Source: Desulfosarcina ovata subsp. ovata
Lineage (GTDB): Bacteria > Desulfobacterota > Desulfobacteria > Desulfobacterales > Desulfosarcinaceae
NCBI RefSeq assembly: GCF_009689005.1
Contig: NZ_AP021879.1
Location: 3,100,001-3,164,000 of the forward strand
DNA length: 64,000 bases
Reading direction: 5' to 3'
Position numbers and translations under genes: made by a program. Shown here in pieces: positions 1 through 7,369 of the stretch (positions are counted from its first letter, which is position 1; each line of letters opens with the position of its first letter). A model generated the notes under the pieces. That model saw nothing but the letters and a program-made list of their open reading frames with translations. It was not told the origin of the DNA and did not search any database.

Positions 1-775
1 TCGGTTATCCATCGAACTGTGCCGAATGTGGAATTGGCGCACCGATAAAGGTCAGCCCAAAGATATTGCCTGCCGTTCAATGTTGCGTAAGCTAGAACAA
101 CGCCAGTTCATCGTGCTGCCGCCACCGTTGCGACCGGGAAATCATTCCCGGCAGATACCTGACATGCCTCATCGTCGCGACCCCATCGAGGGAGTGCTGG
201 ACGATCTTCGTCCTGTTGAAATCATCATGGTCAGTGGCCGTTCAGACAACGATCACCTTTTTCATTGTCTAATGGATCGCTACCATTATTTGGGGTGCCG
301 GGGTCACGTTGGCGAGCATATGAAGTATATGGTCTATGATCGCCACGAAAGGCCCCTGGCCTGCCTGCTTTTTGGATCGGCAGCCTGGAAAACAACACCA
401 CGAGACCGTTACATCGGATGGAACGTGGCTACACGCCAAGGGAATCTGAAGCTGTTGACCAACAACACCCGGTTTTTGATTCTACCCTGGGTTCGCATTC
501 CCAACTTGGCCAGTTTCATTCTGGGCGCTTGTCTCAGGCGGTTGCGGTCCGATTGGTCCACGCGCTATGGTCACGATTTGTGCCTGGTCGAAACCTTCGT
601 CGATCGTTCCCGCTTTGAAGGGACCTGTTATCAGGCTGCCAACTGGCTAAAATTGGGGCAAACCAAAGGCCGCAGCCGTCAAGATCGCTATCGAAAGTTG
701 AAGGTGCCGGTCAAAGACCTGTACGTTTATCCGTTGACAGCCGATTTCAAAAAGCGCTTATGTGCCGCAGGCTGA
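1..775 (+). CDS. DUF4338 (DruA-like) protein of a transposable element, 5' end outside window
   Basis: The frame is open from the first base, and the first ATG at 26 is internal to the conserved N-terminal part (a stretch ending CRSMLRKLEQ then LPPP), so the real start lies before the window. The protein matches my memory of the DUF4338 family, which includes DruA of the Druantia defence system but is far more often found beside transposases. Visible family marks are the FHCLMDRYHYLG segment, a central WKTTPRDRYIGW motif, and LVETFVDRSRFEGTCYQAANW followed by a basic GQTKGRSRQ stretch. It overlaps the transposase start at 762 by 14 bases, so the two are probably co-transcribed as one mobile element. 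Its role in transposition is not established. Family call is fairly sure; function is unknown. Confidence 0.7.
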   Translation, partial: RLSIELCRMWNWRTDKGQPKDIACRSMLRKLEQRQFIVLPPPLRPGNHSRQIPDMPHRRDPIEGVLDDLRPVEIIMVSGRSDNDHLFHCLMDRYHYLGCRGHVGEHMKYMVYDRHERPLACLLFGSAAWKTTPRDRYIGWNVATRQGNLKLLTNNTRFLILPWVRIPNLASFILGACLRRLRSDWSTRYGHDLCLVETFVDRSRFEGTCYQAANWLKLGQTKGRSRQDRYRKLKVPVKDLYVYPLTADFKKRLCAAG

Positions 776-2234
776 AGCTTCGCTACTTGCACGGCAGGCA
801 TTCGAGAACCTGCTATCTGCGAGGCGAGCCATGGAGACCACTGTCGATATTCAAAAGCTGCAACGGACCATTGATGAAACCCTTTCCAATTTCCAGACAC
901 ATTCCGATGCCAACCGGCTGATCATCGATCTGCGCACAGCCCTCTTCTCCACAATTGAGGACTTGATTGTATCTTCCATTGAAAATCTGTTTTCCGATCC
1001 ATGTTTTTTTAAAGCCGTAAAAAAGCTGGCAGCAAAACTCGGATTTCGCTTCAAGGGATTCAAACCCACCAGCATTCGGCTTTTATCCGGCCGATCGCTA
1101 CCGATTGAATCCCCTTATTTTGCCAAAGCGCTTCCGAAATCTCGCCGTGGTCGTAAAAGGAAGAAACGGAAACCGAAAAGCGGTATTCACCTGGGGTTGG
1201 CCTATCTGGGTTTTATGGATCGTTGCAGCGCTGTTTTGGCATCGGCGTCTGTTCAGGCAAGCTTATTGTGTCCGTCATTTGAGATTGCCAATCGGACCTT
1301 GTCTTCTGTTGGCATCGACATGGATATTAAAACGATCCGGCGGTTGTGTATGCACATGGGCAATCGCTCCATGGAGAATCGGCATCGGATAACATTATCG
1401 GAAAATGACCATGTAACCGGCCGCGTTTTGTTCGTGTGCATTGATGGTGGCCGCCTTCGTGAACGCCGGACCAAAAAGGGGCGGTTGGCTTCCCATCAAA
1501 AACGGAGAGGATATTATTCCGACTGGCGGGAGCCGACACAAATCGTTATTCAATGGCTCGACGCCCAGGCAAATCCGATCAAGGAAATTGCCCCGCTTTA
1601 CGATGCCACGATGGCCGACATCAACGGTGCGTTTGAATTATTGGAAGATTATCTTCGTCAAATCGGCGTTGACCAGGCCGACGGAGTAATTTTCTGCGCG
1701 GATGGCGATCGCAGATATTGGAAACGATTTTCCTCACTGGCAGAAAAGCTTGAAGCCAAGACGTGTTTCCAAGTGATCGACTATACCCATGCCAAACAGA
1801 ATTTGCATATTGTCGCGGATCATCTTCCCAAAACCCTTGAAGCCAAAGAGCGAACGGCGATTCTCAAGAATTGGAAGGACCTGTTATGGCAAGGAAATTT
1901 GATGGAAATCCGAAATCAGATTCGTCAGTACATCACGTATCCGTCGAAGCTAAAGAAAGCATTGAACAAGTTCAACAATTACTTTGTGAAAAATCTCCGC
2001 CGCATGCAGTATGCGGCCTTTCGGTTATTAAATCTGCCGACCGGCAGCGGTTGTGTTGAAAGCGCGATACGTCGCGTGATCAATCTTCGGTTGAAAGCGC
2101 CGGGTATTTTTTGGAAGCGTGAGACCGCTGAGGTCATGCTTTTTCTCAGGAGCACATTACTTTGCGGGCGTTGGGATAATATGCTGGAACACTTGCTACA
2201 ACTGAATCGAGGAACATTTGAAGCTTGCCCCTAA
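762..2234 (+). CDS. Transposase, ISKra4-like, downstream of DUF4338 gene
   Basis: A 490-residue protein with a basic RRGRKRKKRKPKSG stretch near residue 130, then a DDE-like core: VCIDGGRLRERR around residue 225, IFCADGDRRYWKRF near 310, IDYTHAKQNL near 340, and a C-terminal GSGCVESAIRRVINLRLK segment. That last segment resembles the glutamate-containing end of ISKra4-type transposases. The start used is GTG at 762, overlapping the upstream DUF4338 gene; an ATG at 831 is an alternative. The right end of the element lies just after the stop, at about 2235-2248, where receptor coding sequence resumes on the other strand. Family assignment is by motif only and could be a related unnamed group. 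Confidence 0.75.
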   Translation: MPQAEASLLARQAFENLLSARRAMETTVDIQKLQRTIDETLSNFQTHSDANRLIIDLRTALFSTIEDLIVSSIENLFSDPCFFKAVKKLAAKLGFRFKGFKPTSIRLLSGRSLPIESPYFAKALPKSRRGRKRKKRKPKSGIHLGLAYLGFMDRCSAVLASASVQASLLCPSFEIANRTLSSVGIDMDIKTIRRLCMHMGNRSMENRHRITLSENDHVTGRVLFVCIDGGRLRERRTKKGRLASHQKRRGYYSDWREPTQIVIQWLDAQANPIKEIAPLYDATMADINGAFELLEDYLRQIGVDQADGVIFCADGDRRYWKRFSSLAEKLEAKTCFQVIDYTHAKQNLHIVADHLPKTLEAKERTAILKNWKDLLWQGNLMEIRNQIRQYITYPSKLKKALNKFNNYFVKNLRRMQYAAFRLLNLPTGSGCVESAIRRVINLRLKAPGIFWKRETAEVMLFLRSTLLCGRWDNMLEHLLQLNRGTFEACP

Positions 2235-2248
2235 ATGGGATTGCACCC

Positions 2249-2655
2249 ACTCTTTCCACGTTGTTAAAATCAATGTCCGTAAACAACACCTTGTCACTGG
2301 GGACGCCGTCTATATAGATGGTTACAGGGTTCTTAAATGTATATCTGCTGCTGCCCAATCCTCTGAAACTAATGTCTCTAATGCCGTTGTTGTCGTTTGC
2401 CTTAAGGTTGGGAACTAAATTCAGGAGATCCGATAGGGTCGTTATATTGGCATCCTCAAGATCTATTGCCGTAAATACGCTTATGGATGCGGGAATTTCT
2501 TGAATTTTCTCCTCATGTTTATTTGCCGTAACCGTTATTTCATCAAGGCGATAGCTTTCATTCTCATCGGCATTCACCTCCTTTGTGAGTATTGAAAATG
2601 CCAAGCTTACAGAAAGAATGCAAAGTATACTGAGCTTAATCGATTGAAAAGTCAC
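2249..2655 (-). pseudogene. TonB-dependent receptor, N-terminal fragment cut by IS
   Basis: The start is GTG at 2655, chosen because a perfect AAGGAGG lies 5 bases upstream and is followed at once by a signal peptide (hydrophobic LSILCILSVSLAFSIL then VNA). The mature part begins with a TonB-box-like YRLDEITVTA and runs through the plug domain (IPASISVFTAIDLED, then LSDLLNLVPNL, DISFRGLGSS, IYIDGVPSDKV, NNVERV). Receptor sequence ends at about 2249, where the IS joins; the rest of the plug and the whole barrel are missing. The gene lies downstream of the AraC gene on the same strand and behind the cobalamin riboswitch, as in siderophore/corrinoid receptor loci. A receptor C-terminus at 15649-16061 may be its lost end. 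Confidence 0.85.
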
Positions 2656-2833
2656 AGATTCCTCCTTGGTGCCGGTTTGAAGACTGATGGGGCAGCTCCA
2701 ATCCTCATTGCCCATGATGATGGTAAGTTAGTTGCGTTTATTGTTTTAAACCGGTTGGTTATAGACAATCGTGGAGGTATCTATAGGCATAAAAAAAAAG
2801 GAGGGCTACCATACAGGTCCATTTTTTTTGTCA

Positions 2834-3835
2834 TCATCGTTCATTTTGACGATACCGGCTGGGAGGCATGCCAAAATGTTCCCTGAACGCTTTTGCAAAA
2901 TGGCTGGAGTTTGAATAGCCAAGGGAATAGGCAATTTGAGTCAAGCTCAAATTTTTATTCTGAACCATCCTTTTGGCCTTTTCTATACGCTTGAATCGAA
3001 GATATTCCGTAGGTGTTGTGCCGTAGAACAGATTGAAATCATGATACAATTTTGTACGAGAGACACCTATTGCCTTAGATAGTTCAATTATATTCGGAGG
3101 GGATTGAAGGTTTTTTACCAACAATTCCCCTGCGTAATGTATTCTGTCAATGTCACAGGATTTTAATCGAGCGGTCTTTTCTTGTTTGCGTATGCTCGGG
3201 TTAAGCTGGTCAAGCTTGCACGCAATCAACTCCATTGCCTTGGCCTCGATAAAAATTCGATGGCCTGCCCCTTGATAAGGGCAATGAATGATTTGTTGCA
3301 AGATCATGTGCATAGAAGGGGTGATACTATCCGTGCAATCAAACGGTTCGCTTATACTCCCATTGTCTCTTAAAGGGACTTTTAAGTTAATGAGGATATT
3401 GTACAACTCCTCTTCCATCAAGGCACCTAAGGAATAGGGATCTATCAATACGACAATGTTATTTATCCGGGTTCCGGGCATGTCTTCAAAAAAGCCTTCG
3501 CGGCTTGGAAAATAGAAAAATCCGCTTTCCCTATTCTTAAAGACCAAACTTTTTTTTAAGCAATACAGATCTAATTTTGTAGTTCCGGAAAGCCAGAAAC
3601 TGAAACCGTATGTGGGGCAATCACCGCCGTGCTCGATTTTAACCTTATGAAATATATTATAATTATTAATAAATACGTGAATTCCACTTTTGAAGTGATA
3701 CGCCTTCATCGTCCCTTCACCGAGACATTGTGAAATTCTCAGGCATTGCTCAACGCAGCCTTTTCCCATAGTTTGGGAATCAAGGGGATCATCTTGCGAT
3801 ATTTCCGTTTTTTTTTCGGCCTCACATTTCTGCAT
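2834..3835 (-). CDS. AraC-family transcriptional regulator (PchR-like)
   Basis: The C-terminal 100 residues form a typical AraC double helix-turn-helix: IIELSKAIGVSRTKLYHDFN as the first helix pair and LTQIAYSLGYSNSSHFAKAF as the second, ending FGMPPSRYRQ. The N-terminal part has the LGEGTMKAYHFKSGIHVF pattern I associate with PchR/YbtA-type regulators that sense ferric siderophores. The frame is open to a TTG at 3943, but an intrinsic terminator occupies 3838-3884, so I place the start at ATG 3835, giving 333 residues; ATG 3769 or 3709 are possible and 3709 has a better Shine-Dalgarno. It lies between the cobalamin riboswitch and the TonB receptor fragment, all on the minus strand. Likely it activates the receptor gene in response to an imported ligand. 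Confidence 0.85.
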   Translation of the reverse strand: MQKCEAEKKTEISQDDPLDSQTMGKGCVEQCLRISQCLGEGTMKAYHFKSGIHVFINNYNIFHKVKIEHGGDCPTYGFSFWLSGTTKLDLYCLKKSLVFKNRESGFFYFPSREGFFEDMPGTRINNIVVLIDPYSLGALMEEELYNILINLKVPLRDNGSISEPFDCTDSITPSMHMILQQIIHCPYQGAGHRIFIEAKAMELIACKLDQLNPSIRKQEKTARLKSCDIDRIHYAGELLVKNLQSPPNIIELSKAIGVSRTKLYHDFNLFYGTTPTEYLRFKRIEKAKRMVQNKNLSLTQIAYSLGYSNSSHFAKAFREHFGMPPSRYRQNER

Positions 3836-3837
3836 AT

Positions 3838-3884
3838 AAAAAATAAAAAATCCCTGAATCGCAAACAGGTTACGATCCAGGGAT
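3838..3884 (-). terminator. Intrinsic terminator of the cobalamin riboswitch (expression platform)
   Basis: On the minus strand an 11-bp stem with one mismatch, TCCCTGGATCG pairing with CGATTCAGGGA, has an 11-base loop and is followed by TTTTTTATTTTTT. It lies about 65 bases after the riboswitch core and just before the regulator start codon. This is a textbook factor-independent terminator and makes the riboswitch likely to act by premature termination. Confidence 0.85.
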
Positions 3885-3950
3885 ATCCCTTTTTTATCCA
3901 GATAGATCCTGAGTAACCGGCATTGCCATACACGGTTGCTCAACGTTTTA

Positions 3951-4104
3951 TCAGGTAGGTCTTCTGACTCTCAGATCATCCTCATGCTGCGCCTTCCCGT
4001 TATATCAACAGTGGCATTGTGCAGCATTTGTCACCGATCACAGCGGCGGGCCCGTTTCCGAATCGCACGGAATTCCCTATTAAGCCAACGGCACCAGATA
4101 AATT
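3951..4104 (-). ncRNA. Cobalamin riboswitch
   Basis: Read on the minus strand, all hallmark blocks appear in order: a 5' GGTGCC, then TTAATAGGGAA, CCGGTG-like CCGTGCGATTCGG, CCCGCCGCTGTGA, GCCACTG, GGGAAGG, GGATGATC, and the B12 box GAGTCAGAAGACCTACCTG. The spacing fits the Rfam cobalamin family. It is followed by an intrinsic terminator and then the AraC gene and the TonB receptor, so binding of adenosyl- or other cobalamin should switch these genes off. A cobalamin riboswitch leading an AraC regulator plus receptor suggests cobalt or corrinoid uptake. Confidence 0.93.
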
Positions 4105-4113
4105 TTGATTTTC

Positions 4114-4142
4114 CGACTACATAACAAGAAGCGAAAAGTCAA
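4114..4142 (-). promoter_or_regulatory. Possible sigma70 promoter for the riboswitch transcript
   Basis: On the minus strand TTGACT (4142-4137) is followed after 17 bases by TAGTCG (4119-4114), about 10 bases before the riboswitch. The -35 is good and the -10 poor, so this is tentative. Confidence 0.35.
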
Positions 4143-4162
4143 GCGTATTTGCTCTTCTTTTA

Positions 4163-4921
4163 CTATGCCGTCTCCTTGGCCAGCAGTGCCGCACCCAGCG
4201 CACCCACCCGTTGGGGATCGTCCGGCAGCCGAATGGTGCGCCCCAGCTTTTCTTCCAGCAGTTTGTGCATACAAGGGTTGTTGGCCACGCCGCCGGTAAA
4301 GGCGATATCCCCTTCCGTGGAAACACGGTTGATCATGCCGGCTGCCCGGCGGATGACGCTGGCGTGCAATCCCCGGGCAATCTCCCGGCGGTTCTCCCCC
4401 TTGGCAATCAGGGAGGTCACTTCGGATTCGGCAAAAACCGTGCACATGCTGGAGATGTTGAGGCCCTTTTCCGCCAGCAGCGCTTCGCGGCCGAAATCGT
4501 CGATGGCAAATCCCAGGGTGCGGGCCATGATCTCCAGAAATTTTCCGGTGCCGGCGGCACAGCGGTCGTTCATCTCGAATTTCTTCACCCGGCCGTTATC
4601 CAGCATGGCAATGGCTTTGCTGTCCTGCCCACCGATGTCGATAACCGCTCGAACGTCGGGAAACAGCGCACGGGCGCCCCGGGCGTGGGCCTTGATTTCC
4701 GTCACTGTTGACGCATCAAAGGATATCTCGAACAGGTTGCGGCCATAGCCGGTGGCCATGATGCGGTCGAAAGCCACTCCCGCGATCATTTTCTTGGCCT
4801 CGGCCATGGGGTCGAAACCGGTGTCGGCCTGGTGGCTCTCTAAAATTTCATCGGCCTCATCGACCACCACCAGTTCGATGGTGCGCGATCCGATGTCGAT
4901 ACCTGCAAACCGTTTCGCCAT
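4163..4921 (-). CDS. ATPase activator of 2-hydroxyacyl-CoA dehydratase family (HgdC/BadG/YjiL-type)
   Basis: A 252-residue ASKHA-fold ATPase of the family that injects electrons at very low potential into HgdBC, benzoyl-CoA reductase or double-cubane proteins. Visible: phosphate-1 loop GIDIGSRTIEL at residues 7-17, phosphate-2 AVIDIGGQDSK near 92-102, and the two cysteines that hold the bridging [4Fe-4S] cluster of the homodimer, Cys121 in DRCAAGTGK and Cys160 in SSMCTVFAESEV. C-terminal AFTGGVANN and GALGAALLA complete the nucleotide site. Start ATG 4921 has AGGAG 11 bases upstream. It is the last gene of the operon with the CCG protein and the double-cubane protein, its probable target. Length is normal for the family. 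Confidence 0.92.
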   Translation of the reverse strand: MAKRFAGIDIGSRTIELVVVDEADEILESHQADTGFDPMAEAKKMIAGVAFDRIMATGYGRNLFEISFDASTVTEIKAHARGARALFPDVRAVIDIGGQDSKAIAMLDNGRVKKFEMNDRCAAGTGKFLEIMARTLGFAIDDFGREALLAEKGLNISSMCTVFAESEVTSLIAKGENRREIARGLHASVIRRAAGMINRVSTEGDIAFTGGVANNPCMHKLLEEKLGRTIRLPDDPQRVGALGAALLAKETA

Positions 4922-4959
4922 TGCGATTCATACTCCTGTGGTCTGAAAAGGACGCATGG

Positions 4960-6090
4960 TCAGCTAGGATTCCTGCCCGCCCGCTGGGTGGCGGCGGCAA
5001 GACTCTTTTTAAAGCGCCGCTTGAGTATCAGACGGTTGATGTAGGTCAGCGGACTGCCGGCCCCCCGCATACTCCCGTTGAGCGCCTTTTCAGGAAAAAA
5101 AAGCACGTCGGCGAGATGCACGGTCGGGGTCTTGCGATTTAAAAACCCGGCGCAACCGGCACAATACGTGACCAGCTTGCGGCCTTGCGCTTCCCGGCTG
5201 CGGATTCGCCTCCAGTTCCGGGCCAGTTCCGGACGCATGAACCCCACACTGCCGCCTTCGCCACAGCAGAGGGTGCGGCCACGGCGATGTTTCATCTCAG
5301 TCACGGTGAGTCCCATTCGCCTCAGGATGGTACGCACGCTGTCCTGAACGGCGGATTCCCTGCGAAGCGGGCAGGGATCGTGGATGGCCAGTTCGCCATC
5401 CCCTCGGGCAGCGGCGGGAAGTTCTCCCCGGCTTAAAATTTCATAGACGGTTTCCACCGCCAACCCGTTGCCGTACTGCTTAAAAATTTTGTGGCAATTG
5501 GGGCAGGCAGTCAGCACCCTTCGGACGCCGTTGGAGCGCAGGTAGTCCCGCATTTCAGCAAACATCCGATCGAAATGGCCCTGCCGGCCAAGATCATGAC
5601 TGGGTTTGGTGCAGCAGTCGAAAACGATGCCCAGCGCCGGGATGCTGCGCTGCAGGTGGGCGAATAGCCGCCAGGTGGATTCCGGACGGGTTCCGGGTAA
5701 GGTACAGCCGGGGAAAAAAACGGTATCACATCCGTCGGGAAGCCCATAGTAGGAGAAGAGCGCTGACGAGCCCCGCTTCTCATAGGCCAGTATGGTGCGA
5801 TAGGAGGCGAAGTTGCCATTTTCATGAATCACGGCCTCCCGCCGGATGGCGAGAAAAAGCTCCCCCGGATCCAGCTTTTCCGGACAGACGGCGCCACAAA
5901 GGCCGCAGAGACTGCATTCAAAGGCCAGTTGCTGATTCGCCGGATCGGAGAAGTCGTATTTCTCGATAATCGCCTTTGGTGTCCCGTAATGCTGCAGAAA
6001 GGCGCAGCCGGCCTGGCACGCCCCGCAATCCGTGCATGTCGAACCGATACGATCGATCGTTTGCCTGAGTGGCGTGGAGTACTTGTCCAT
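4960..6090 (-). CDS. Fe-S protein with 4Fe-4S dicluster and CCG domains (HdrD/GlpC-like)
   Basis: The N-terminus carries two ferredoxin-type cluster motifs, CTDCGACQAGC and CSLCGLCGAVCP, followed by a C-terminal half with cysteine-rich CCG-type motifs (FFPGCTLPGTRP, FDCCTKPSHD, TACPNCHKIF, LCCGEGGSVGF, TYCAGCAGF). This arrangement is that of HdrD, GlpC and lactate-utilisation LutA/E-type electron carriers. I start at ATG 6090, immediately after the stop of the upstream gene (TAG at 6094-6092), instead of an overlapping TTG at 6111. A C-terminal basic tail follows. Placed between a double-cubane protein and its ATPase activator, it is a good candidate for the electron donor to the activator; that link is inference. 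Confidence 0.85.
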   Translation of the reverse strand: MDKYSTPLRQTIDRIGSTCTDCGACQAGCAFLQHYGTPKAIIEKYDFSDPANQQLAFECSLCGLCGAVCPEKLDPGELFLAIRREAVIHENGNFASYRTILAYEKRGSSALFSYYGLPDGCDTVFFPGCTLPGTRPESTWRLFAHLQRSIPALGIVFDCCTKPSHDLGRQGHFDRMFAEMRDYLRSNGVRRVLTACPNCHKIFKQYGNGLAVETVYEILSRGELPAAARGDGELAIHDPCPLRRESAVQDSVRTILRRMGLTVTEMKHRRGRTLCCGEGGSVGFMRPELARNWRRIRSREAQGRKLVTYCAGCAGFLNRKTPTVHLADVLFFPEKALNGSMRGAGSPLTYINRLILKRRFKKSLAAATQRAGRNPS

Positions 6091-6091
6091 C

Positions 6092-7369
6092 CTATCGGAG
6101 TTGTTCGACAAAGGCCTCCACCCGCGTTTTCAGCTGGCCGACATCTTCCATGCTGTAGTCGGTTTCAATACGCAGACAGGGGATCTGCTTCTCTTCCAGG
6201 GCCGTCTCGACAGGAATAGATTCCATCAGGTAGGGCTGGCAGAACTGCAGGCCGTAATGAATCACGCCATCGGCGCGGTAATCGGCCACCATTTGCTCGA
6301 TATGCGCCAGCCGGTCCGGATTGGGCGTGAAAATGGCACAGTCAACCATGAAATAGCGGTCCACAATGGCATCGATCATCTCTTCCACCGTCTCGCCGGA
6401 TTCATCGGTCAGGTTGCGGGTGCCGCGTTCGCCCACACAGGACTCCTCGCCGACGATCACCGCGCCGGCGGTTTCGACGATCATGGGCAGTTTCCAGTTG
6501 GGCACCGCCTGGGGGCAGCCGGAAACCAGGATACGGGGGGTTTTTTCCGCAAATACGCCCTGTTTGGATTCGATCCGTTTTTCCAGTTCATCGCAGATCT
6601 TGTTCACCGAATCGGTAAATCGTTCCGGATTGTCATAAAAGAACACCTGGTTGGCCAGAAGGGCATCCAGGCCCGAGATCGGGGCCGGGTCGGCCCTGCG
6701 AAGGGTGAAAAGCCGATGCAGGGCCGCGCGCTTGGCATTGACCGTCTGGATGGCTGTTTTCAGGGACCCGGCGGTCACGGCGACACCCGTGAGATCTTCA
6801 ACCGCCGCCTTGAATCGCTGATATTCGGCCTTGAGCAGCGCCTTACCGTTTTCGGACTTGACCTGCGGCAGGTCCATCACATAGAGGTTGTCAACCATGC
6901 CGCCCAGGGTCTCATAGGACTTTTTCTTGCCATCGCAGGTGTTTTCGCCCACGATCATGTCGGCACTCTCCAGATACGGGCAGACTTTGCCGACCTTGAA
7001 CCCGAAGGACGACTTGATCAATGCGCAGGTGTTGCGCGGCAACAGCCGTTCCACATCCTCGGTGGCGAAATCGGCACCGGAACAGAGACCGACCAGGGTG
7101 GCATTGGCCGCCAGCACGATCTCCTCGGGAACAAAGACGCAGTAAGAACCGATAATCTTGCGACCGATAGCCTTCTCGTCCATCAGTTCCTTAATGCGCA
7201 GGCCGTGGACTTCGCTCATCACAAAATCGAAATAGCCCATTCCCTCGGGCCGATTCTCCTGTGCCAGGTAGATATCCTGATAGGCCTGGCCCAACACATT
7301 CAGGAGCATATCGTGGGCTTCGAGATCAAGGCCCAAGTCGGTCCACATGGCATTATAATTTTCACTCAT
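6092..7369 (-). CDS. Double-cubane cluster protein-like, 2-hydroxyacyl-CoA dehydratase family (HgdB/YjiM-type)
   Basis: A 425-residue single-subunit member of the HgdB/BcrC/YjiM family. Cysteines placed like cluster ligands are Cys77 (GSYCVFVP), Cys115, Cys130 (KVCPYLES), Cys145 (ENTCDGKK), plus later ones in VSGCPQAV, EESCVGERG and FCQPYL. The C-terminal ETDYSMEDVGQLKTRVEAF is characteristic of the family. A lone HgdB-type subunit next to an HgdC-type activator, with no second dehydratase subunit, is the layout known for double-cubane [8Fe-9S] proteins (DCCP with its reductase) and for E. coli YjiM/YjiL. The natural substrate of these is unknown; a true 2-hydroxyacyl-CoA dehydratase would need a second subunit. 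Start ATG 7369 follows GAGGAGA. First gene of the operon. Confidence 0.82.
   Translation of the reverse strand: MSENYNAMWTDLGLDLEAHDMLLNVLGQAYQDIYLAQENRPEGMGYFDFVMSEVHGLRIKELMDEKAIGRKIIGSYCVFVPEEIVLAANATLVGLCSGADFATEDVERLLPRNTCALIKSSFGFKVGKVCPYLESADMIVGENTCDGKKKSYETLGGMVDNLYVMDLPQVKSENGKALLKAEYQRFKAAVEDLTGVAVTAGSLKTAIQTVNAKRAALHRLFTLRRADPAPISGLDALLANQVFFYDNPERFTDSVNKICDELEKRIESKQGVFAEKTPRILVSGCPQAVPNWKLPMIVETAGAVIVGEESCVGERGTRNLTDESGETVEEMIDAIVDRYFMVDCAIFTPNPDRLAHIEQMVADYRADGVIHYGLQFCQPYLMESIPVETALEEKQIPCLRIETDYSMEDVGQLKTRVEAFVEQLR

What the first reader, a model, noticed from the sequence alone, without database searches (positions are those of the whole stretch)
2655..4142. Cobalamin riboswitch with intrinsic terminator controls an AraC regulator and TonB receptor
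Complete riboswitch blocks, a clean terminator 65 bases later and then an AraC gene mean that cobalamin should shut off the regulator as well as the receptor. Most cobalamin riboswitches control transport or synthesis genes directly; coupling to a PchR-like activator gives a two-input gate (ligand present AND cobalamin low).
Basis: partly seen in the sequence, partly recalled or inferred. Interest (0 to 1): 0.6.

Follow-up and report, generated by a model that had tools for sequence, protein, structure and literature searches.

The report
Vitamin B12 switch controlling an uptake regulator
A vitamin-B12-sensing RNA sits in front of a gene for a regulator that probably turns on an outer-membrane importer, an arrangement found again in related bacteria, although here the importer gene is broken by a mobile element.

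Summary
The riboswitch is real. RF00174 matches window 4113-3937(-) over its full length, 108.6 bits against a cut-off of 31.5. An intrinsic terminator (stem 3884-3850) follows 52 nt later, then an AraC-family gene (stop at 2834). With the terminator's 3' arm absent a competing antiterminator folds, so 'cobalamin high = AraC off' is well supported in silico. Receptor control is weaker: the receptor starts 178 bp further on, perhaps behind its own promoter, and an insertion sequence splits it (exact 9-bp target duplication; 8 identical copies in the genome), which the finding missed. I found four further riboswitch->AraC->TonB units: one in this genome, two in Dethiosulfatarculus sandiegensis, one in Desulfocarbo indianensis; all four add an MFS transporter and an O-methyltransferase. 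On an AraC tree the riboswitch label needs four changes. The receptors' closest solved relative is the pesticin receptor (FyuA), not BtuB. Best reading: a B12-gated, PchR-like activator of metallophore uptake. A cobalt metallophore is the boldest version, untested. I rate it a new variant of a known kind.

The parts
3937..4113 (-). Cobalamin riboswitch aptamer (RF00174), complete
   Evidence: cmscan 108.6 bits, model 1-189/189, E 2.8e-26; 1 of 24 in the genome
3916..3936 (-). Hairpin just after the aptamer, in the place of P13; its 3' arm overlaps the antiterminator 5' arm
   Evidence: minimum-energy fold; the name P13 and its role are recalled, not tested
3868..3918 (-). Antiterminator: GGUUAC/GUAACC, GAUC/GAUC and GGAUA/UAUCC helices, exclusive with the terminator
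   Evidence: fold of the leader without the terminator 3' arm, -17.4 kcal/mol; GGATAAAA-type motif found by pattern in 9 of the 24 leaders of the genome
3838..3884 (-). Intrinsic terminator (15-pair stem 3884-3850, then T tract)
   Evidence: stem covariation over 12 leaders, 0 of 500 shuffles reach the observed covariation score
2834..3835 (-). AraC-family regulator, 333 aa from the first in-frame ATG after the terminator; ATGs at 3769 and 3709 are alternatives
   Evidence: PF12833 and PF00165 over cut-off; starts; AlphaFold2 model pLDDT 89.6 with N-terminal beta domain plus HTH; Foldseek to Rns, ToxT, CuxR, AraC
2656..2833 (-). 178-bp gap between regulator and receptor; proposed AraC-dependent promoter region (inferred)
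   Evidence: a gap of 178-331 bp follows the regulator in all five units, measured on mechanical ORFs; no minus-strand terminator found in it
2249..2655 (-). 5' part of TonB-dependent receptor gene (signal, start of plug), broken off by the insertion
   Evidence: PF07715 53.8 bits; barrel half outside the window matches PF00593 and the pesticin receptor, E 2e-31
1..2248 (+). Insertion sequence that splits the receptor gene (its left 211 bp lie outside the window); transposase 762-2234, DruA-like ORF 26-775 (start may lie outside the window)
   Evidence: exact 9-bp target duplication and terminal repeats; ISKra4-like transposase NF033572 107 bits, cut-off 205; PF14236 140.5 bits; 8 copies at 100%

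Best explanation
This is a transcription-terminating cobalamin riboswitch in the 5' leader of an AraC-family activator gene that belongs to a metallophore-type (FyuA-like) outer-membrane uptake unit. When adenosylcobalamin or a related corrinoid is plentiful, the aptamer is occupied, the hairpin behind it keeps the antiterminator from forming, the terminator forms, and the regulator is not made. When corrinoid is low, transcription reads through and the regulator is made. As in PchR-type systems (recalled), the regulator would then need its own ligand, presumably the imported chelate, to activate the receptor promoter in the 178-bp gap. The receptor is thus gated by 'cobalamin low AND ligand present'. 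Shown in silico: aptamer, terminator/antiterminator, AraC protein with a ligand-type domain in the model, receptor family, recurrence of the unit. Inferred: ligand binding by the RNA, activation of the receptor by this AraC, the nature of the ligand. In this genome the output receptor is split by an insertion sequence, so the gate probably has no working output at this locus.
For: Full-length RF00174 at 108.6 bits. Platform z -3.76. Terminator -21.5 against antiterminator -17.4 kcal/mol, exclusive. Stem covariation 0.289 against 0.153 in shuffles, 0 of 500 as high; 90.5% of cells paired against at most 61.3% in slid versions. AraC HTH and AraC-type N-terminal domain in the model. Receptor barrel nearest to the pesticin receptor among solved structures. 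Second unit in the genome with the same order, one in D. indianensis, two in D. sandiegensis (names). Terminators found by the scan in 3 of 5 leaders and seen by folding in a fourth. The riboswitch label needs four changes on a 72-sequence AraC tree, 0% of 200 bootstrap trees with one. Chance adjacency expectation 0.004 against 2 seen in this genome and 0.019 against 2 in D. sandiegensis.
Against: No binding or expression data. The first ATG has no clear Shine-Dalgarno; the only ATG with a good one (3709) would cut into the modelled beta domain. No sigma-70-like promoter was found on the minus strand in 2200-4400, so read-through from the operon ending at 4163 is possible. The D. indianensis leader has a weak aptamer (50.8 bits) and no clear terminator. 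The receptors stay below the curated siderophore-receptor cut-off (unit 2: 211.7 of 223.5; window barrel 140.4). The coupling is rare: 5 of 46 PchR-like AraC genes in four genomes. The window unit has no MFS gene within the 20 kb of L032 or in the window, and its nearest methyltransferase relative is about 13 kb away on the other strand.
Confidence: 0.72

Rival explanations
1. The riboswitch acts on one long transcript of regulator and receptor, so cobalamin switches both off directly and the AraC protein plays no special part in the gate.
For: Same strand; no minus-strand terminator found between the two genes; seven TonB receptor genes of this genome stand directly behind a riboswitch.
Against: Gaps of 178 to 331 bp follow the regulator in all five units, while most transport genes behind it are closely packed. 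PchR-type regulators usually activate a receptor promoter (recalled).
Confidence: 0.2
2. The unit is a corrinoid importer: the receptor takes up cobamides, and the AraC protein senses a corrinoid or a corrinoid precursor.
For: Many of the riboswitches of this genome front corrinoid, cobalt or TonB uptake and synthesis genes.
Against: The closest solved receptor is the pesticin receptor (2e-31 window barrel, 8e-47 unit 2, 4e-81 profile of five); BtuB matches only weakly or in the plug. The MFS partners are AmpG/RhtX-like, not BtuCD.
Confidence: 0.2
3. The adjacency is an accident of genome rearrangement without regulatory meaning: with 24 riboswitches and active insertion sequences one may land before an AraC gene.
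For: 24 riboswitches, 8 copies of one insertion sequence, broken receptor.
Against: Five units that need four changes on the regulator tree; chance expectation 0.004 and 0.019 against 2 and 2 seen; terminator platform similar to that of riboswitches before TonB receptors.
Confidence: 0.07

Closest known systems
Cobalamin riboswitch (RF00174) with terminator platform
   Same: Full aptamer; terminator/antiterminator platform.
   Different: The first gene is a transcription regulator, not one of the four classes of the regulon survey PMC3766115 (synthesis, B12 transport, cobalt transport, isozymes; passages).
Listeria monocytogenes cobalamin riboswitch acting on the regulator gene pocR (Mellin 2013, seen only through passages of PMC9943018)
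   Same: A cobalamin riboswitch sets the level of a transcription regulator (that PocR is AraC-type is recalled).
   Different: There the riboswitch RNA is antisense at the 3' end of pocR and B12 allows PocR; here it is sense, in the 5' leader, and B12 should block the regulator.
PchR-FptA-FptX and YbtA-FyuA-YbtX siderophore uptake units (recalled)
   Same: AraC regulator next to a receptor whose closest solved relative is the pesticin receptor (FyuA; name recalled); RhtX/FptX- or AmpG-like MFS in four of five units.
   Different: Regulator gene sits behind a cobalamin riboswitch; an O-methyltransferase is added in four of five units; the known ones are Fur-regulated (recalled; PMC545781 passages, say so of FoxR-like regulators).
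FoxR of Desulfovibrio (PMC545781, passages)
   Same: AraC-type regulator tied to receptor/TonB genes in sulfate reducers.
   Different: Predicted Fur control there; in the passages seen, B12-elements are predicted before synthesis, transport and nrdDG genes, not before a regulator.

Membership tests
Cobalamin riboswitch RF00174 | Covariance model match over the curated score | tested here: met
   108.6 bits against 31.5, model 1-189/189
Cobalamin riboswitch RF00174 | Conserved core with the B12 box (box name recalled) | tested here: met
   GCCACUG and the AGACC block aligned to the consensus
Cobalamin riboswitch RF00174 | L5-L13 kissing loop | not tested
   a hairpin stands in the right place; the tertiary pairing was not tested
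Cobalamin riboswitch RF00174 | Expression platform with mutually exclusive structures | tested here: met
   terminator and antiterminator share the 5' terminator arm; terminator covariation
Cobalamin riboswitch RF00174 | Binds cobalamin | not testable with these tools
   needs a binding assay
AraC/XylS family | C-terminal AraC HTH domain | tested here: met
   PF12833 89.1 bits, PF00165 52.2 bits, both over cut-off
PchR-like regulators | N-terminal ligand domain, gene next to a TonB receptor | tested here: met
   beta domain in the model with AraC sensor-domain matches; receptor next door
PchR-like regulators | Binds an imported ferric siderophore | not testable with these tools
   ligand unknown; no PchR-specific curated model among the 25 of 30 families shown
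BtuB vitamin B12 receptor | TIGR01779 score | tested here: not met
   24.4 (plug part) and 40.6 bits (barrel part) against 599.7
FyuA-type receptor | Full-length similarity to the pesticin receptor (4epa) as closest solved relative | tested here: met
   window barrel E 2e-31, unit 2 8e-47, profile of five 4e-81
TonB-dependent siderophore receptor TIGR01783 | Curated score | tested here: not met
   window plug 40.1, window barrel 140.4 (each a part of the protein), unit 2 211.7, against 223.5
RhtX/FptX siderophore permease partner | TIGR02718 over its cut-off | tested here: not met
   117-153 bits against 356 in four units, AmpG higher in three of them; no MFS relative near the window unit
Antisense-acting riboswitch (Listeria pocR type) | Riboswitch antisense at the 3' end of the regulator gene | tested here: not met
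   aptamer is sense and 5' of the AraC gene

The most novel reading that the evidence does not exclude
B12-gated cobalt-metallophore uptake. In several Desulfobacterota lineages a cobalamin riboswitch was recruited independently in front of PchR-like activators of FyuA-like receptor/MFS/O-methyltransferase units, so that a metallophore carrying cobalt for cobamide synthesis is taken up only when cobalamin is short and the metallophore is present. The methyltransferase would modify the chelator after entry. One relative of this methyltransferase lies directly behind a cobaltochelatase cobN gene in the same genome.
Probability: 0.25. Interest if true: 0.78.

Novelty: new variant of a known kind. 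Interest (0 to 1): 0.55.

Why it matters
Riboswitches normally sit before the enzyme or transporter that their ligand makes redundant. Here one sits before a regulator that presumably senses a second molecule, giving a two-input gate made of RNA and protein, and the tree suggests that the arrangement arose several times. That points to metal-chelate uptake that serves cobamide demand, and it names two isolates (D. sandiegensis SPR, D. indianensis SCBM) in which a cobalt-metallophore hypothesis can be tested.

Tried and rejected
Simple corrinoid receptor: lowered because the receptors match the pesticin receptor and not BtuB. Antisense action as in Listeria: rejected by orientation. Accident: not supported. 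A single ancient riboswitch-AraC cassette: the tree needs four changes, starred branches force four, and 0% of 200 bootstrap trees have one; many losses from one origin remain possible but are less simple. The label is also not clustered beyond chance on that tree (59 of 500 shuffles as low). The rows of the tree were chosen with a profile built from the five riboswitch-fronted proteins, and some rows are copies of one gene.

BzaC hypothesis for the methyltransferase (5-hydroxybenzimidazole O-methyltransferase; recalled): could not be tested, since I had no BzaC model or named sequence. Its curated matches are weak (best BchU 43.6 bits, cut-off 276) and its nearest solved relatives are various SAM-dependent methyltransferases.

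Riboswitches before AraC genes outside this AraC group: of 40 further riboswitches (15 of 17 in G428, 12 of 16 in G201, 11 of 14 in G022, 2 of 9 in G012) one has an AraC-HTH gene in the 4.3 kb fetched, in G022, directly behind it, with a cNMP-binding domain. Five stretches with weak-scoring matches (29-46 bits) in G043, G219 and G201 hold no AraC gene of this kind. 39 AraC loci with short flanks scanned with Rfam, some of them the same gene twice, gave one riboswitch. 80 methyltransferase loci (the best 80 of 121) gave three, all of them units already found (detector: nhmmer profile of the 24 own aptamers).

Promoter scan: no minus-strand sigma-70-like site in 2200-4400. Two more Rfam looks for RNAs in loci were. 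The output was cut in the middle, so the loci L128-L131 were seen only in part. Literature: ten searches; listings were cut (20 of 62; 12 of 129; 10 of 12; 15 of 27). I recognised, from titles and abstract starts, no paper describing a cobalamin riboswitch in the 5' leader of an AraC/PchR-type activator. Papers of which I saw passages: PMC2613906, PMC2864759, PMC545781, PMC3766115, PMC9600662, PMC4809877, PMC9943018. The library lacks most subscription journals, and the search words were mine.

Full report
WHAT IS THERE. All elements lie on the minus strand. Rfam finds one RNA in the 64 kb window at gathering level: the cobalamin riboswitch, 4113-3937, 108.6 bits, complete. It is one of 24 in the 7.63 Mb genome; in 29 other genomes of the family the number is 1 to 14. 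Fifty-two nt behind the aptamer a 15-pair hairpin with a T tract begins, 3884-3850. The 99-nt platform folds at -33.7 kcal/mol, z -3.76. If the 3' arm of the terminator is left out, as in a paused transcript, the RNA folds into an antiterminator (GGUUAC/GUAACC, GAUC/GAUC, GGAUA/UAUCC; -17.4 kcal/mol) that uses the 5' arm of the terminator (-21.5) and part of the hairpin behind the aptamer. A GGATAAAA-type motif stands in 9 of the 24 leaders, among them some before TonB receptors, and similar ones in others. Over 12 leaders (11 from this genome, the window's included, and 1 from D. sandiegensis; chosen by eye for a similar platform) the terminator stem keeps 90.5% of its pairs and its covariation score (0.289) is reached by 0 of 500 shuffles; slid versions pair at most 61.3%. 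The weaker measure, pairs with a change on both sides (3), is reached by 37 of 500 shuffles, two of the twelve columns pairs are unpaired or gapped in most rows, and the choice of rows leans towards the structure.

THE GENES. The AraC gene has both HTH models over their cut-offs. Its AlphaFold2 model (pLDDT 89.6, 35 sequences) has a beta-rich domain at residues 28-170 and the HTH domain. Foldseek matches whole AraC-type regulators such as Rns and ToxT with low TM-scores (about 0.3), and the sensor domain of AraC itself (2arc, TM 0.56 by target), so a ligand domain is likely and its ligand unknown. The receptor starts at GTG 2655 behind AAGGAGG and runs into an insertion sequence at 2248. The junctions show an exact 9-bp duplication and terminal repeats. 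The transposase is ISKra4-like, below the curated cut-off. Eight copies identical over the 2248 bases queried lie in the genome. The barrel half lies beyond the insertion. Unbroken relatives exist.

THE SAME UNIT ELSEWHERE. The closest AraC relative found in the genome (27% identity, E 1.3e-41) lies directly behind another cobalamin riboswitch (77.1 bits). It is followed by a TonB receptor, an MFS transporter and an O-methyltransferase. In G201 a 50.8-bit riboswitch precedes an AraC gene, then TonB, O-methyltransferase, MFS. In G428 two riboswitches (92.1 and 89.2 bits) precede AraC genes, followed by TonB-O-methyltransferase-MFS and by MFS-TonB-O-methyltransferase. Contig lengths equate G201 with Desulfocarbo indianensis SCBM and G428 with Dethiosulfatarculus sandiegensis SPR. 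Aptamer-to-terminator distances are 52 (window), 52 and 57 nt (both G428) where the scan found one; unit 2 has its terminator 61 nt behind the aptamer (the stretch scanned ended before it); in D. indianensis none is clear. Behind the AraC gene there is a gap of 178, 325, 275, 188 and 331 bp in the five units, measured on mechanical ORFs, which suggests a separate promoter for the transport genes. The window unit has no MFS relative within 20 kb of L032 or in the window; a methyltransferase relative lies about 13 kb beyond the receptor on the other strand.

HOW OFTEN. Counting PchR-like AraC genes at E<=1e-12 in G000 (5, protein query) and at E<=1e-30 in G428 (27), G201 (7) and G044 (7) (profile query), 5 of 46 are fronted by a riboswitch; the two thresholds and queries differ. 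A simple chance estimate (500 bp, same strand) expects 0.004 such pairs in G000 (2 seen), 0.019 in G428 (2), 0.0055 in G201 (1), 0.0053 in G044 (0). On a tree of 72 AraC proteins (careful IQ-TREE; a few rows are copies of one gene) the riboswitch label needs 4 changes, starred branches force 4, and 0% of 200 bootstrap trees have one; 59 of 500 label shuffles are as low, so the label is not clustered. So the coupling most simply arose four times. In this genome, for 20 of the 24 riboswitches the first gene could be named from family matches: 2 are AraC; 8 aptamers stand before 7 TonB receptor genes (one behind a tandem pair; most score below the curated cut-offs of the specific receptor models); the rest include a BzaB fragment with CobT, CbiK, CbiM, BtuF, FecCD, SBP_bac_5, DUF3450, a Glycos_transf_3 protein, acetyl-CoA decarbonylase/synthase gamma, and one (L019) whose first ORF has only a sub-cut-off match. 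L006, L013, L017 and L024 were not assigned. Of 40 further riboswitches in four genomes, one precedes a different AraC-type gene with a cNMP-binding domain (G022).

WHAT IT IMPORTS. For the window barrel the closest solved structure is the pesticin receptor 4epa (FyuA, the yersiniabactin receptor; names recalled), E 2e-31; for unit 2 the same at 8e-47, then CntO and FoxA at about 1e-23, and BtuB only in the plug; for the profile of five receptors the same at 4e-81. The MFS proteins score 117-153 bits for RhtX/FptX, below the cut-off of 356, and in three of four AmpG scores higher. This points to a metal chelate rather than a corrinoid, but no curated family settles it. Cobalt is my guess, because cobalamin riboswitches are known to control cobalt transport (PMC3766115, passages) and one stands before CbiM here, and because a relative of the methyltransferase follows a cobN gene.

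MECHANISM AND LIMITS. Shown in silico: aptamer, platform, gene order, recurrence. Inferred: cobalamin binding, AraC as activator of the receptor, its ligand, the cobalt link. No promoter of sigma-70 type was seen before the aptamer; the upstream genes, a double-cubane reductase, an Fe-S protein and an activase, end about 50 bp away on the same strand, so read-through is possible. The start codon of the AraC protein is unsettled.

NOVELTY. A cobalamin riboswitch controlling a regulator is known from Listeria (pocR), where it works as an antisense RNA at the 3' end (PMC9943018, passages). The main text of a survey of riboswitch regulons does not contain the word AraC (PMC3766115). My ten searches of open papers (listed under Tried and rejected; four listings were cut) showed nothing that I recognised as a 5'-leader case before an AraC/PchR-type activator; subscription journals are mostly absent. 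I rate it a new variant of a known kind.

Noticed in passing
whole genome G000 (L001-L024): 24 cobalamin riboswitches in one genome, the most among 30 genomes of the family searched; they include a tandem pair (1232872/1233280) and two divergent pairs.
   Followed up: partly
window 1-2248 and seven other places in G000: An ISKra4-like insertion sequence carries a gene matching PF14236 (DruA of the Druantia defence system) beside its transposase; 8 copies at 100% over the bases queried.
   Followed up: partly
window 4163-7369 and L028:5753-7890: Double-cubane reductase plus activase stand just upstream of the window riboswitch; a related pair (33% identity for the reductase) lies behind another riboswitch, after a TonB receptor gene.
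   Followed up: partly
L026:5590-6939 (G000:C1 about 2799.5-2800.8 kb): A riboswitch leads a short BzaB/ThiC-like fragment (65 of 426 model positions) and then cobT: the lower-ligand gene looks truncated.
   Followed up: no
L035:1785-3332: A cobalamin riboswitch precedes the gene of acetyl-CoA decarbonylase/synthase gamma subunit, a corrinoid protein (recalled), rather than a B12-independent substitute.
   Followed up: no
L285:3062-4009 (G022): Another cobalamin riboswitch with a terminator-like hairpin directly before a regulator with cNMP-binding and AraC HTH domains.
   Followed up: partly
L171-L250: A widespread O-methyltransferase family in uptake loci: with AraC-TonB-MFS or AraC-TonB-NitT/TauT-type ABC genes in bacteria, and beside FecCD/BtuF-like genes in some archaea (ABC type named from recall).
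   Followed up: partly
G428 (Dethiosulfatarculus sandiegensis): 27 PchR-like AraC genes at E<=1e-30 in one 5.9 Mb genome.
   Followed up: no
L085 about 15132: A GGCCAGAAGACG stretch like the end of an aptamer lies just upstream of the weak D. indianensis riboswitch; no second riboswitch match there.
   Followed up: partly
G000:C1:6445746-6446084: A methyltransferase fragment, 87% identical to the unit-2 gene, lies upstream of unit 2, a sign of a duplicated or broken copy.
   Followed up: no
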